DNA of 47,414 nucleotides from Gloeocapsa sp. DLM2.Bin57 (GTDB lineage: Bacteria; Cyanobacteriota; Cyanobacteriia; Cyanobacteriales; Gloeocapsaceae). This document shows positions 30,597-39,215 of the stretch, one piece after another. The stretch spans positions 1-47,414 of the forward strand of contig RECR01000072.1 of the NCBI GenBank assembly GCA_007693955.1, given 5' to 3'. How positions within the stretch are numbered: the stretch's first letter is position 1; each line of letters begins with the position of its first letter. The position numbers were made by a program, and so were the translations under genes. Below the pieces are notes generated by a model that was not told the origin of the DNA, ran no database searches, and saw only the letters and a list, made by a program, of their open reading frames with translations.

Positions 30597-31505
30597 ATGA
30601 CTAGTCAGTCTGAAAAAATCCCTGTATCTGTCTTGATTCCTGCTAAAAACGAAGAATTAAACTTACCTAGTTGTTTAGAAAGCGTCAATAAAGCAGCTGA
30701 AGTTTTTGTGGTTGATTCTCAAAGCGACGATCGCACTCTTGAAATTGCCACAAGTTATGGAGCACAAGTAGTGCAATTTTATTTTAAGGGAGGTTGGCCC
30801 AAAAAGAAAAATTGGGCATTAGATAATCTCCCTTTTAACTATGAGTGGGTTTTAATCGTTGACTGTGACGAAAGAATCACTCCAGAATTGTGGTCAGAAA
30901 TTGCTACAGTGATTCAACATACGGAGTACAACGGTTATTATCTCAATCGTAGGGTTTATTTTCTCGGTAAATGGATTCGTTATGGTGGGAAATATCCCGA
31001 CTGGAATTTACGGTTATTTCGACACGAAAAAGGTCGTTACGAAAATTTACATACAGAAGATGTACCCAATACAGGAGATAACGAAGTTCATGAGCATATC
31101 CTGTTAACAGGAAAAGCAGGCTATCTGCAAAATGATATGTTGCACATAGATTTTAGAGATATCTATCAATGGTTAGAGCGTCATAACCGTTATTCCAACT
31201 GGGAAGCGAGAGTTTATTATAATTTGCTTCAGGGGGGAAAACAAGAAAACACCATCAAGGCTAATTTTCTAGGTAATCCTATACAAAGAAAACGTTTTCT
31301 CAAAAAAATTTGGATTTATTTACCCTTTAAACCCCTATTGCGATTTATTTGGTTTTACTGGATTCGTTTAGGTTTTCTCGATGGTAAAGCGGGTTATATT
31401 TACGCTCGTTTACTAAGTCAATATGAATATCAAATTCAAGTAAAACTCTATGAGCTACGCAAGTTTGGCGGTAAACTCAATTTACCAGACGAATCGAGAG
31501 CATGA
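30597..31505 (+). CDS. Family 2 glycosyltransferase (WaaE-like)
   Basis: A 302-aa glycosyltransferase. It opens VSVLIPAKNEELNLPSCLES, has FVVDSQSDDRTLEIA near residue 40, KNWALDNLPFNYEWVLIVDCDERI near residue 75-95 (DCD motif), and the WNLRLFRHEKGRYE segment near 140. This is the WaaE/KdtX-like layout of short GT2 enzymes in LPS or exopolysaccharide synthesis. A GTG 6 bases upstream is an alternative start. The acetyltransferase gene downstream overlaps its stop in an ATGA junction, so the two work in one surface-glycan pathway. Confidence 0.88.
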   Translation: MTSQSEKIPVSVLIPAKNEELNLPSCLESVNKAAEVFVVDSQSDDRTLEIATSYGAQVVQFYFKGGWPKKKNWALDNLPFNYEWVLIVDCDERITPELWSEIATVIQHTEYNGYYLNRRVYFLGKWIRYGGKYPDWNLRLFRHEKGRYENLHTEDVPNTGDNEVHEHILLTGKAGYLQNDMLHIDFRDIYQWLERHNRYSNWEARVYYNLLQGGKQENTIKANFLGNPIQRKRFLKKIWIYLPFKPLLRFIWFYWIRLGFLDGKAGYIYARLLSQYEYQIQVKLYELRKFGGKLNLPDESRA

Positions 31506-32080
31506 AAACAGTAGATTTACGTAAATATGACCAATCGGGATTCGACAGAGGACGTCCAACTTGGTTTATTTTACTCTGGTGGTTAGTACAAAGTATTGGT
31601 TTTCCTTTGAGCTTACACAATTTTAACTGGTTTCGATGTGCACTGTTGCGTCTATTTGGCGCTAAAATTGGTGAACAAGTTATTATTCGTCCTACAGCTA
31701 GATTTACTTATCCTTGGAAAGTAACCATTGGTGATTATAGTTGGATTGGCGATAATGTCACCTTTTATAGTCTAGATAATATTGAGATTGGTTCTCATAC
31801 GGTAATTTCCCAAAAATCTTATCTCTGTACTGGTAGTCATGATCTAGAAGATATACACTTTGGGTTGATTACTGCACCAATTATTGTTGGTAGTGGTGTT
31901 TGGATAGCTACAGACTGTTTTATAGCTCCTGGAGTAATCATTGGTAATAATACAGTGGTAGGAGCGCGTAGCAGTGTTTTTAATGATTTATCTGAAAATT
32001 TAGTCGCTTGGGGGAATCCCTGTCGTCCTCAATATCCGAGAAAGTTGACAAAAAATAAGCTCAACTCTCCAATTTTGTAA
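31502..32080 (+). CDS. WcaF-like putative colanic-acid-type acetyltransferase
   Basis: A 192-aa left-handed beta-helix acetyltransferase. It begins with a short amphipathic segment (STWF-type WFILLWWLVQSIGFPLSLH) typical of the WcaF-like putative colanic acid acetyltransferase group. Hexapeptide repeats follow (IGDYSWIGDNVTFYSLDNIEIGSHTVIS, then PIIVGSGVWIATDCFIAPGVIIGNNTVVGA). The likely catalytic histidine is in GSHDLED near residue 113. It overlaps the glycosyltransferase by 4 bases and probably O-acetylates the same surface glycan. The gene is followed by the riboswitch leader. Confidence 0.85.
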   Translation: MKTVDLRKYDQSGFDRGRPTWFILLWWLVQSIGFPLSLHNFNWFRCALLRLFGAKIGEQVIIRPTARFTYPWKVTIGDYSWIGDNVTFYSLDNIEIGSHTVISQKSYLCTGSHDLEDIHFGLITAPIIVGSGVWIATDCFIAPGVIIGNNTVVGARSSVFNDLSENLVAWGNPCRPQYPRKLTKNKLNSPIL

Positions 32081-32111: not shown

Positions 32112-32172
32112 AACGTTCATCTCTAGATTAGAGACGGAAGTAAGGAGATAGCTCTCCCGAAGGAACGCGCCT
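32112..32172 (+). promoter_or_regulatory. Glutamine-II type riboswitch (Downstream-peptide RNA / glnA motif)
   Basis: The RNA reads CGTTCAT...ACGGAAGTAAGG...CCGAAGGAACGCGCC, which matches the conserved blocks of the Downstream-peptide/glnA RNA family, glutamine-binding riboswitches of cyanobacteria. Three helices are visible: P1 CGTTC (32114-32118) with GAACG (32163-32167), P2 TCTCTA with TAGAGA (32120-32134), and P3 GGAGA with TCTCC (32144-32157). A -10-like TATAAT lies at 32083-32088. It sits 40 bases before a 59-codon gene, the typical context. One extra A is present in the GGAAGTA(A)GG block compared with the consensus I remember. Confidence 0.85.
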
Positions 32173-32211
32173 CATTCAGTTTACTCTTAAATTTGAGGCA
32201 AAGGTTCTTCA

Positions 32212-32391
32212 ATGATTAAACAAACACCAGAAAATCAACTTAACTCTGTCCAGCTACCCACCACCAACGTAATTAGTATTTACACTTATAAACGCGCTCT
32301 TGACCCTGTCGATGCTCAATTTGATTTTTCCTTATGGGCACAGGTGGTACGGGAGCGAATGTTAGCTGTCATTGAAAAAAAAGTTAGGTAA
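32212..32391 (+). CDS. 59-aa protein downstream of glutamine riboswitch
   Basis: A small gene with ATG at 32212 and stop at 32389-32391. The protein has a polar N-terminus (KQTPENQLNSVQLPTT), a central ISIYTYKRALDPVDAQFDFS segment, and a final amphipathic helix (LWAQVVRERMLAVIEKKVR). No cysteine, signal peptide or membrane helix. It does not resemble the glutamine synthetase inactivating factors IF7/IF17 that I know. AAAGG lies 7 bases upstream of the ATG. The glutamine aptamer before it and a terminator after it make it a monocistronic unit whose level should follow glutamine. Function unknown; a regulator of nitrogen assimilation or carbon/nitrogen balance is inferred. Confidence 0.78.
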   Translation: MIKQTPENQLNSVQLPTTNVISIYTYKRALDPVDAQFDFSLWAQVVRERMLAVIEKKVR

Positions 32392-32417
32392 GCTAGGTTT
32401 ATCATTATAGCAGATGA

Positions 32418-32450
32418 AGTCTCTCTTAGGTGGGAGGCTTTTCTTCTTTA
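32418..32450 (+). terminator. Terminator after the 59-aa gene
   Basis: AGTCTC pairs with GAGGCT (one G-T pair) around a 10-base loop, followed by TTTTCTTCTTT, 26 bases after the stop codon. Confidence 0.75.
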
Positions 32451-32535
32451 TATTTTCTTTATATTTATATAAAGTTAACCCTAATTTAACTAAAAATTTG
32501 TTAACCTATGACTAAATCAAGGTGAGGGGTAAATA

Positions 32536-32724
32536 ATGGTCTTTATACGTGAAATTGCCGAAGCGGCTATAGCTACAGGAAGTCTAACCCTGGCTAACGA
32601 ACAAAAACTAAGGCTAATGTTAAAGCAAAAATACGAGCAGGAAGATTTAGAAGCCTTCATGAGCTTACAACAAGCAGTCATCAGGGGTCAAGTTAAACAA
32701 CAATCTCGTTATATAGCTTCTTAA
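32536..32724 (+). CDS. Small conserved-looking cyanobacterial protein, 62 aa
   Basis: A 62-aa protein, all helical in appearance: FIREIAEAAIATGSLTLANE, then [21 protein letters not shown] and QQAVIRGQVKQQSR. I recall similar short proteins of unknown function in other cyanobacteria but cannot name a family. The start is supported by a strong GAGGGG eight bases upstream. The upstream gap has a GTTAAC...GTTAAC repeat pair (about 32473-32507). It is separated from the 59-aa gene by a terminator, so it has its own promoter. No function can be assigned. Confidence 0.75.
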   Translation: MVFIREIAEAAIATGSLTLANEQKLRLMLKQKYEQEDLEAFMSLQQAVIRGQVKQQSRYIAS

Positions 32725-37469: not shown

Positions 37470-39215
37470 CTAGCCATTTACATGGGTACAAAAGGGAGTA
37501 ACTTTGAGTAAATCTATCACTTTCTGTTGTAAGTCAGTCAATTCTGTAATCTTCTCAAACATCAAAGATTGACCAATAGTGACTACCTCAATAGTATTTA
37601 AACAGATTGTGCCTAAATCATTAAGTAAAGTCCGAAAACTATGTACGGGCTCATCTAGTTCATTTTTTTTCGTTCTACTCTTTCTTTTAGTTTTAGAACT
37701 AGCTTGATATTTCAGCACTCGACTTTCATCAAGACTTAATTCTTCTGGTTCTTCTTCAAATAATAAACTTGTGAGCGATTGCCGCATATACCATTCTACA
37801 TAATAAGATAGCATACACAAGAAAATGTGTGCTTTAACTCGATGATCACGATAATGATAAATTGGTCTAACTTTTAAATCTATGCTCTTCAATGAGCGAA
37901 ATGCTTGTTCAACTTTTGCTAATTTTTTATAGGCTTTTACTGTCTCAATTGCGGACATATTTGCTGCTTTTACTGACGTTCTAATCATGTATAGTCCATC
38001 CATAACCTCGTCGGCTTTTTTGATTTCTTGTTTCAGGGAATAATGGAAACTGTTGTCTGTCATTTCTAACTCAAAGTATTTCCCTACTTTATATTTATTA
38101 ATTACTTTACCTACTCTTAATCCGATTTTATCTTGACCAGATAAGGCTCTTTTTTCTCTTTGAGTTGCTGCTACTATTTTATCTAATTCAATAGCTGTAG
38201 CTTTGATTAATTCTTCCCTTTTATATTGGTTACTTGCTGCTAATAAGGGATTTTTACAGACTACTAATCTTTCTCCTGGATATTCATCTGATTCAATTTC
38301 GACTATGTTTCTTTCATCAAATAGTCCGAGCTGTATTTCTTGTCTTTCAACTAGTTGCTTGATTTGGCTTTTTCTTAATGTAGTTATCCAATCGATACTT
38401 TCACTGTTGCTTAATTCTTCTTTGATAACTAGATTAGTGAGCATTCCTTTGTCTCCTACCCACACTACTGAAGAGAGTCTAAATCTATCTCTAACTTTTT
38501 CAATTTGTTTTTTGACTGTACTAGCATCATTTGTATTTCCTGGAAACACTTCTACTGCAACAGGACATCCTTGACTGTTACAAATTAAGCCAAATACTAT
38601 TTGAGTATATCCTCTTTTTTTGTCTCTGCTATATCCATATTTTCCTAAGTTACATGCCTCTCCTTCTAAATAAGTTGAGGTGAGGTCATATAAGACTAGT
38701 GAACCTTCTCTTAATTCTTTTGCTGCTAATTTCTCTTCTATTGCTTCTTGAGAGTCTCCCAACCAATCTAAGGCTTCATATAAATCATCTTCTGTTACTT
38801 TTTCTAAGTTCAGTATTTTGCCCAAACTACTGTTAGCCGTTTCTCTTCTTAACCCTCGACTCGTGGCTAGCTTGGATTTTGGGTCAATAATTCTGGCGGT
38901 AATTAGACTTTTTATAATGGCGTTTCTCTTGTTATTTTCGCTTTCTATTATTGGCTCTAATCCTATCTTTTTAATTGTTCCTAGTATTGCGGCAATATGA
39001 CCATGTGGTAGACTTCTTTTAACCTTCAATACTGATTCAATATTATCTATAATTTTACCGCCTTTAAGAGCGGCTTTGAGATTGTCAATGACATCATCTG
39101 GTAGTTGAGAAAGATTGGCTATGGTTCTTTTGCAAATCTTATCTCCTTCGCGATATGATTCGCGAAGTAATATGGCTGGGGGAGAATTACGATTGGGAAC
39201 TCTTTCTATATACAT
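37470..39215 (-). CDS. IS1634-family DDE transposase
   Basis: A 581-aa IS4-superfamily transposase of the IS1634 type. It begins YIERVPNRNSPPAILLRESY. The DDE catalytic residues are visible in LYDLTSTYLEG (first Asp), VVWVGDKGMLT (second Asp) and KVEQAFRSLKSIDLKVRPIYH (Glu in the YREK-like region). The reading frame is intact, so the element could still be active. The last six residues (CTHVNG) are coded by one copy of the internal direct repeat, TGTACCCATGTAAAT. Confidence 0.92.
   Translation of the reverse strand: MYIERVPNRNSPPAILLRESYREGDKICKRTIANLSQLPDDVIDNLKAALKGGKIIDNIESVLKVKRSLPHGHIAAILGTIKKIGLEPIIESENNKRNAIIKSLITARIIDPKSKLATSRGLRRETANSSLGKILNLEKVTEDDLYEALDWLGDSQEAIEEKLAAKELREGSLVLYDLTSTYLEGEACNLGKYGYSRDKKRGYTQIVFGLICNSQGCPVAVEVFPGNTNDASTVKKQIEKVRDRFRLSSVVWVGDKGMLTNLVIKEELSNSESIDWITTLRKSQIKQLVERQEIQLGLFDERNIVEIESDEYPGERLVVCKNPLLAASNQYKREELIKATAIELDKIVAATQREKRALSGQDKIGLRVGKVINKYKVGKYFELEMTDNSFHYSLKQEIKKADEVMDGLYMIRTSVKAANMSAIETVKAYKKLAKVEQAFRSLKSIDLKVRPIYHYRDHRVKAHIFLCMLSYYVEWYMRQSLTSLLFEEEPEELSLDESRVLKYQASSKTKRKSRTKKNELDEPVHSFRTLLNDLGTICLNTIEVVTIGQSLMFEKITELTDLQQKVIDLLKVTPFCTHVNG
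37476..37490. repeat. 15-bp direct repeat, left copy inside the IS
   Basis: ATTTACATGGGTACA, identical and in the same orientation as 39267-39281. This copy codes for the last residues of the transposase. Confidence 0.9.

What the first reader, a model, noticed from the sequence alone, without database searches (positions are those of the whole stretch)
32112..32391. Glutamine-II type riboswitch controlling a 59-aa protein of unknown function
The leader has the conserved blocks of the Downstream-peptide/glnA RNA (CGTTCAT, ACGGAAGTA, CCGAAGGAACGC) and three matching helices. It stands before a gene encoding a 59-aa protein that I cannot match to IF7 or IF17, the glutamine-synthetase inactivators whose relatives use this riboswitch. 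The unit is closed by its own terminator. A glutamine-sensed microprotein is a good candidate for an undescribed regulator of nitrogen status.
Basis: partly seen in the sequence, partly recalled or inferred. Interest (0 to 1): 0.78.

Follow-up and report, generated by a model that had tools for sequence, protein, structure and literature searches.

The report
Glutamine riboswitch controlling a cyanobacterial microprotein
A well-known kind of glutamine-sensing RNA switch stands in front of a 59-residue protein that belongs to a widespread but unnamed family of small cyanobacterial proteins, making it a good candidate for a new protein that acts when cells have plenty of nitrogen.

Summary
The leader is real. 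Rfam puts a complete glutamine riboswitch aptamer (RF01739, glnA type = class I, not class II) at 32112-32171, 52.8 bits against a cut-off of 35. The 59-aa frame starts 40 nt later. In a sister species (G001) the same RNA and a 59%-identical frame stand together. In both, the aptamer's 3' strand can pair instead with the region before the start codon, so a glutamine-ON translational switch is predicted.

The protein is not an orphan. It belongs to a family of small proteins with a C-terminal motif F[DN]FxLWAxxV[KR]xQMLAxLxKR, found in 115 of 388 genomes of the class; a profile built without the genus still finds it (E 6.6e-11). The 17 members scanned match no Pfam or NCBIfam cut-off. Most members lack the riboswitch: 6 of 69 distinct proteins examined have it, in two genera of two families. 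Profile comparison with IF7-like proteins finds no similarity.

So the riboswitch is ordinary; its pairing with this family, and the family itself, seem new. The likely role, a nitrogen-excess effector acting by protein contact through the conserved helix, is inference. Identity with PirA could not be tested by sequence.

The parts
32112..32171 (+). glutamine class I (glnA) riboswitch aptamer; P1 formed by CGTTC (32114-32118) and GAACG (32163-32167)
   Evidence: RF01739, 52.8 bits, full model; the aptamer folded alone forms P1
32159..32210 (+). expression platform: alternative hairpin in which GAAGGA of the aptamer pairs with TTCTTC before the start codon and GCCTCA with TGAGGC; it uses part of the 3' strand of P1 and holds the AAAGG in an internal loop
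   Evidence: ViennaRNA fold of the leader and of the platform alone (-16.0 kcal/mol, z -2.44 against 60 Markov shuffles); same hairpin in sister species G001 (L005, z -2.04)
32212..32391 (+). 59-aa protein; variable, probably disordered N-terminal half and conserved C-terminal helix FDFSLWAQVVRERMLAVIEKK (residues 37-57)
   Evidence: ORF; orthologue; family profile and leave-out test; AlphaFold single-sequence model, helices 17-28 and 39-58, mean pLDDT 94 for residues 41-50 and about 50 for residues 1-30
32416..32451 (+). terminator-like hairpin and T-rich tail closing the unit
   Evidence: 10 pairs, 4 G-C; consensus scan only

Best explanation
A class I glutamine riboswitch raises translation of a small cyanobacterial protein when glutamine is plentiful. 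Without glutamine the 3' strand of aptamer helix P1 pairs with the region just before the start codon and hides it from ribosomes; with glutamine P1 forms and frees it. The protein belongs to an unnamed family of roughly 43-70 aa proteins: a variable N-terminal half, then one conserved Trp-containing helix. Most likely it binds a target in nitrogen or carbon metabolism when nitrogen is in excess, by the same logic as the inactivating factors and PirA, but with another helix and probably another target. Shown here: RNA class, position, conservation, family. Predicted from folding and from published work on this riboswitch class: glutamine-ON control. Inferred: binding to a partner and the direction of its effect.
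For: RF01739 hit and the arrangement riboswitch - 39 or 40 nt - frame in both near-complete genomes of the genus; the third (77% complete) breaks off 19 nt beyond the neighbouring 62-aa gene, so it is silent. Exclusive P1 and platform hairpins in window and G001, also in the own genome's 72-aa leader. Of 194 census leaders, 192 have at least 4 of the 13 bases at -16 to -4 paired in the platform fold and 106 pair the P1 3' strand with the last 20 nt before the start or the start itself (these two counts have no shuffled control; mean folding z -1.23, 125 of 194 below -1). Family: 115 of 388 class genomes at E<=1e-4, best E 7.9e-20; a profile of the 15 members outside the genus scores the window frame E 6.6e-11 and the G001 frame 6e-17 among 1513 frames, next best 2.3. 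A second genus in another family (G402, G475, G487, G530) has members directly behind RF01739 matches of 48.2-52.7 bits. 109 of 115 family-bearing genomes also carry RF01739 somewhere, against 121 of 273 without the family (not corrected for kinship). The review PMC6316151 (passages) describes type 1 and type 2 glutamine riboswitches as activating expression on glutamine.
Against: Only 6 of 69 distinct family proteins examined are behind the riboswitch, so glutamine control is not a general property of the family. The platform arms are nearly identical between window and G001, so there is no covariation to prove the alternative hairpin, and in the fold the AAAGG is partly unpaired. In the own genome's IF17 leader the start-region hairpin does not use P1 and both form together in the fold; in G402 and G475 the overlap with P1 is slight, so the exclusive pairing is not shared by all leaders. 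No promoter match was found before the leader. The co-occurrence over the class may reflect shared ancestry. No expression, binding or interaction data.
Confidence: 0.6

Rival explanations
1. The 59-aa protein is a diverged glutamine synthetase inactivating factor (IF7/IF17 kind), so the unit is the usual gif gene.
For: In the riboswitch census most downstream frames are DUF4278/IF17 or IF7 type (53 DUF4278 with IF7-like tail, 64 DUF4278 other, 34 IF7-like of 196 frames, three riboswitches counted twice; motif-based sorting with some misplacement).
Against: hhalign of family profile A2 against IF7-like profile A3 gives probability 0.1%. No DUF4278 or IF7A hit for any of 17 family members, while the genome's own riboswitch-borne IF17-type gene (L001) does hit DUF4278 over its cut-off and IF7A below its cut-off.
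Confidence: 0.1
2. [quoted passage not shown]
For: PirA is small (Ssr0692 is listed with 5.85, which I read as kDa, PMC6603209), made under nitrogen excess, widespread in cyanobacteria but absent from marine picocyanobacteria (PMC8092223).
Against: The genus g8, which I take for Synechocystis from its 149-aa IF17-type gene (inference; the length of Synechocystis IF17 is recalled), shows no convincing family member in 4 genomes (best E 0.42, in a 261-aa frame), though PirA is defined in Synechocystis. The passages and section that I saw give no PirA sequence, so no direct comparison was possible.
Confidence: 0.12
3. The riboswitch drives the next gene (62 aa, 32536-32724) as well or instead; the 59-aa frame is a short leader gene.
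For: The 62-aa gene follows in the same order in G001, 84% identical, and has relatives in 25 of 40 genomes searched.
Against: A terminator-like hairpin lies between them, the platform hairpin ends just before the 59-aa start, the 59-aa frame is conserved and belongs to a family, and among the loci held at that point the 62-aa family turned up only at the window and G001 loci.
Confidence: 0.1
4. The leader is a decayed or non-switching copy and the frame is made constitutively or not at all.
For: No promoter match before it.
Against: The full aptamer model is matched well above the cut-off; frame and leader are both conserved in G001.
Confidence: 0.05

Closest known systems
Class I glutamine riboswitch (glnA RNA, RF01739) before gifB/IF17 in Synechocystis
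   Same: Same aptamer family; frame about 40 nt behind; start region predicted to lie in a hairpin
   Different: The downstream protein has no DUF4278 and no profile similarity to IF7-like proteins; in the own genome's IF17 leader the hairpin does not compete with P1 as it does here
Downstream-peptide RNA (class II, RF01704) of marine picocyanobacteria
   Same: A glutamine aptamer before a short protein
   Different: Sequence scores as RF01739; RF01704 not reached. Type 2 elements are described as apparently restricted to marine picocyanobacteria and tied to DUF4278 proteins (PMC6316151, passages)
PirA (Ssr0692), PII-interacting small protein
   Same: Small protein made in nitrogen excess; possible logic of action
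Glutamine synthetase inactivating factors IF7/IF17
   Same: Small proteins under glutamine-riboswitch or NtcA control
   Different: No profile similarity to IF7-like proteins

Membership tests
Glutamine class I riboswitch (RF01739) | Covariance score over the curated cut-off with the full model matched | tested here: met
   52.8 bits against 35, positions 1-53 of 53
Glutamine class I riboswitch (RF01739) | Expression platform exclusive with P1, before a gene | tested here: inconclusive
   Alternative hairpin 32159-32210 shares part of the P1 3' strand; folding prediction only, no covariation
Glutamine class I riboswitch (RF01739) | Binds L-glutamine and changes expression | not testable with these tools
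   Needs in-line probing and reporters
Glutamine class II riboswitch (RF01704) | Covariance score over cut-off for RF01704 | tested here: not met
   No RF01704 match at gathering threshold in the window
IF7/IF17 inactivating factors | IF7-type core or DUF4278 domain | tested here: not met
PirA | Sequence similarity to Ssr0692 | not testable with these tools
   Sequence not available to me; indirect evidence against
Unnamed F[DN]FxLWAxxV[KR]xQML small-protein family (this report) | Significant score to a profile built without the genus; conserved F39, W42, V46 of the window protein | tested here: met
   Leave-out profile of 15 members: window frame E 6.6e-11 among 1513 frames, next best 2.3; the three columns are invariant in the 17-row alignment

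The most novel reading that the evidence does not exclude
The motif family is an undescribed class of cyanobacterial regulatory microproteins whose Trp-containing helix docks on one conserved partner (PII, a transporter or an assimilation enzyme). Its synthesis has been tied to nitrogen status by different means in different lineages: a glutamine riboswitch in two genera, NtcA-type boxes in others. The locus would then add a third arm, besides the inactivating factors and PirA, to the nitrogen-excess response.
Probability: 0.3. Interest if true: 0.72.

Novelty: new variant of a known kind. Interest (0 to 1): 0.5.

Why it matters
Cyanobacteria control nitrogen flux in part with small inhibitor proteins (the inactivating factors, PirA), and a glutamine riboswitch before a gene is a strong hint that its product belongs to that network. 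The find links an unmodelled small-protein family, present in 55 of 159 genera searched, to glutamine sensing in two genera of different families, and points to strains in which to look for its partner. A census of 196 downstream frames (193 after removal of three riboswitches counted twice) also shows that these riboswitches serve several small-protein families besides the inactivating factors.

Tried and rejected
Searches that led nowhere: single-protein search of 60 relatives found only the own and the sister genome; back-translated patterns in genome contigs and viral contigs and tblastn against plasmids gave nothing, though those collections may leave out the own genome; only the profile search over whole genomes reached the family. 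Pfam's weak ABC_trans_N hits (5 of 17 members, best E 0.0016; 14.5 bits against a cut-off of 25.4 for the window protein) were set aside as chance on a short helix; this was not tested further. PDB search: best E 0.29, a 13-residue match, rejected. Conserved neighbourhood: among 29 family loci of up to 3 kb the shared neighbours came from loci of genus g138, apart from one cluster of three loci that includes another genus and the cluster of the family itself, so no functional hint.

NtcA boxes: exact GTAN8TAC (consensus recalled) within 300 nt upstream of 13 of 62 distinct non-riboswitch members, against a mean of 2.4 and a maximum of 7 in 500 Markov-shuffled sets. But 7 of the 13 come from one family (six of genus g2 at -237 to -296, one of g44 at -162), and four more lie at -87 to -214. 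Two boxes at -60/-62 (L261, L264, one genus) sit where a regulator site could. Start codons were chosen by rule, which shifts these distances. I treat this as a lead. No exact box lies in the 300 nt before the window frame. A first script for that count failed part-way and was rerun with one member of too short upstream sequence (L260) set aside.

AlphaFold was run on the single sequence only (mean pLDDT 65, pTM 0.33); no fold search was made. The sorting of census frames by motif is rough: 3 of 8 'other' frames are plainly IF7-like or two-helix frames (L073, L115, L095), and three further riboswitches had no frame in the fetched stretch. The census holds the better-scoring matches of two searches, not all matches.

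Full report
A scan of the whole window against Rfam gives two matches over threshold, a tRNA and a glutamine riboswitch aptamer RF01739 at 32112-32171 on the + strand (52.8 bits, cut-off 35, complete model). This is the glnA or class I type; class II (RF01704) did not reach its threshold. The own genome, 3.45 Mb, holds three RF01739 matches at E<=1, all over the cut-off. One stands before a 109-aa IF17-type gene with DUF4278 and an IF7-like tail (L001), one before a 72-aa hydrophobic protein with two probable membrane helices by eye (L003), and one before the 59-aa frame of the finding.

The pair is conserved. In the sister species G001 a 59%-identical frame lies 39 nt behind an RF01739 match of 57.7 bits (G001:C180:14074-14133). 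The nucleotide differences fall on codon positions 17, 14 and 28 times over 58 codons, as expected for a coding frame. The third genome of the genus is 77% complete; its contig ends 19 nt beyond the neighbouring 62-aa gene, so its lack of a match is silent.

Mechanism. The leader can fold in two exclusive ways. The aptamer alone folds with P1 made of CGTTC and GAACG. The 3' part alone folds into a long hairpin (32159-32210) in which GAAGGA of the aptamer pairs with TTCTTC before the start codon and GCCTCA pairs with TGAGGC; the AAAGG lies in an internal loop of it. The minimum-energy fold of the whole leader takes the second form, so without ligand the start would be masked and glutamine binding would free it. 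G001 gives the same hairpin, and the own genome's 72-aa leader also pairs its P1 strand with the start region. Not all leaders do: in the IF17 leader P1 and a separate start-region hairpin form together in the fold, and in G402 and G475 the overlap with P1 is slight. Of 194 census leaders, 192 have at least 4 of 13 bases before the start paired and 106 pair the P1 3' strand with the start region (these two counts have no shuffled control; mean folding z-score -1.23). A review describes type 1 and type 2 glutamine riboswitches as activating expression (PMC6316151, passages); the original work (PMC6212724) is not held. Folding is a prediction, and window and G001 are too alike for covariation.

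The protein is a member of a family. A profile of the two orthologues (A1) found weak relatives in 98 of 388 genomes of the class at E<=0.05 (a few, in very long frames or with stops, are noise). A 17-sequence profile (A2) finds the family in 115 of 388 class genomes at E<=1e-4, 55 of 159 genera, with one to three copies, and in 31 of 195 genomes of the order at E<=0.01. Because A2 contains the window protein, I rebuilt it from the 15 members outside the genus: it scores the window frame E 6.6e-11 and the G001 frame 6e-17 among 1513 frames of two sequences, the next best being 2.3. Members are mostly 43-70 aa with my choice of start. The N-terminal half varies; the C-terminal motif F[DN]FxLWAxxV[KR]xQMLAxLxKR is kept, with F39, W42 and V46 invariant in the 17-row alignment. 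Single-sequence AlphaFold gives a confident helix for residues 39-58 and low confidence before it. The 17 members scanned reach no Pfam or NCBIfam cut-off (the best weak Pfam hit is E 0.0016 to ABC_trans_N; the cut-off itself was shown only for the window protein's hit), and the best PDB match is E 0.29. A text search for six motif strings in 5.39 million open papers found none, and the searches on glutamine riboswitches and small proteins (listings) showed no paper on this family by title or abstract. That does not exclude subscription papers, supplements or figures.

Control differs within the family. I examined 79 fetched loci, 69 distinct proteins, for an upstream riboswitch: by motif within 300 nt for all, and by Rfam for 60 loci. 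Six distinct proteins have it: the window, G001, and four genomes of genus g62 in family f2 (G402, G475, G487, G530; 48.2-52.7 bits). Sixty-two do not, and one (L260) had too little upstream sequence. The further matches were not fetched. In the same family f2, the six genomes of genus g2 with a family member have no RF01739 match; they carry an exact GTAN8TAC (NtcA-type, consensus recalled) 237-296 nt upstream instead. NtcA boxes are more frequent than in shuffles overall (13 of 62 against 2.4), but over half come from that one family, so this is a lead only. Family-bearing genomes nearly all carry a glutamine riboswitch somewhere (109 of 115, against 121 of 273 others; Fisher p 2e-23), but kinship was not corrected for.

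What the protein does. By profile comparison the family is not IF7-like, and no scanned member has DUF4278. The genus that I take for Synechocystis shows no convincing member in four genomes (best E 0.42), which argues against identity. By analogy of control, size and build I propose a nitrogen-excess effector that binds a partner through the conserved helix. This step is inference; I give 0.6 to the statement as a whole, with the riboswitch part near certain and the protein's role much less so.

Novelty. The riboswitch is a plain member of a known class. The pairing with this family and the family itself are undescribed as far as the searches named above show. I therefore call it a new variant of a known kind: a glutamine-riboswitch/small-protein unit with a new protein.

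Noticed in passing
L003 (own genome, contig C66, minus strand) and L090, L094, L096, L111, L112, L127, L131, L134, L142, L144, L145, L150, L155: A second unmodelled family behind class I glutamine riboswitches: about 70-aa proteins with two hydrophobic stretches and consensus NTKEEIVKVA...FAPWxxKLL (14 of 196 census frames; 13 aligned as A4; no Pfam or NCBIfam hit for the one member scanned).
   Followed up: partly
L082, L121, L124, L193: A 35-53 aa frame with one hydrophobic stretch and motif P[TI]LCW[VI]L behind the glutamine riboswitch; no Pfam or NCBIfam hit for the one member scanned.
   Followed up: no
L098, L100, L128, L141: Frames with motif WQ.Y..LEL.P ... [YH]LE[RK]C behind the glutamine riboswitch; no Pfam or NCBIfam hit for the one scanned.
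   Followed up: no
L034, L168: A 49-51 aa frame ending SGFSTDGSWYQWVKKNRQQ[AS]IDR behind the glutamine riboswitch; the one scanned has no Pfam or NCBIfam hit.
   Followed up: no
L119, L132, L043; also L047/L149: Two riboswitch-DUF4278 units a few hundred bases apart on one contig; in L047/L149 two riboswitches but a frame found behind only one within the stretch.
   Followed up: no
window 32536-32724 (+): A 62-aa gene downstream, 84% identical and in the same order in G001, with relatives in 25 of 40 genomes and up to six matches per genome; no hit over a Pfam or NCBIfam cut-off.
   Followed up: partly
window 31502-32080 (+): The gene upstream matches NCBIfam HpsU (hormogonium polysaccharide biosynthesis acetyltransferase) over its cut-off, 324.1 against 305 bits.
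   Followed up: no
window 37470-39215 (-): A 581-aa frame that looks like an insertion-sequence transposase by eye; not searched.
   Followed up: no
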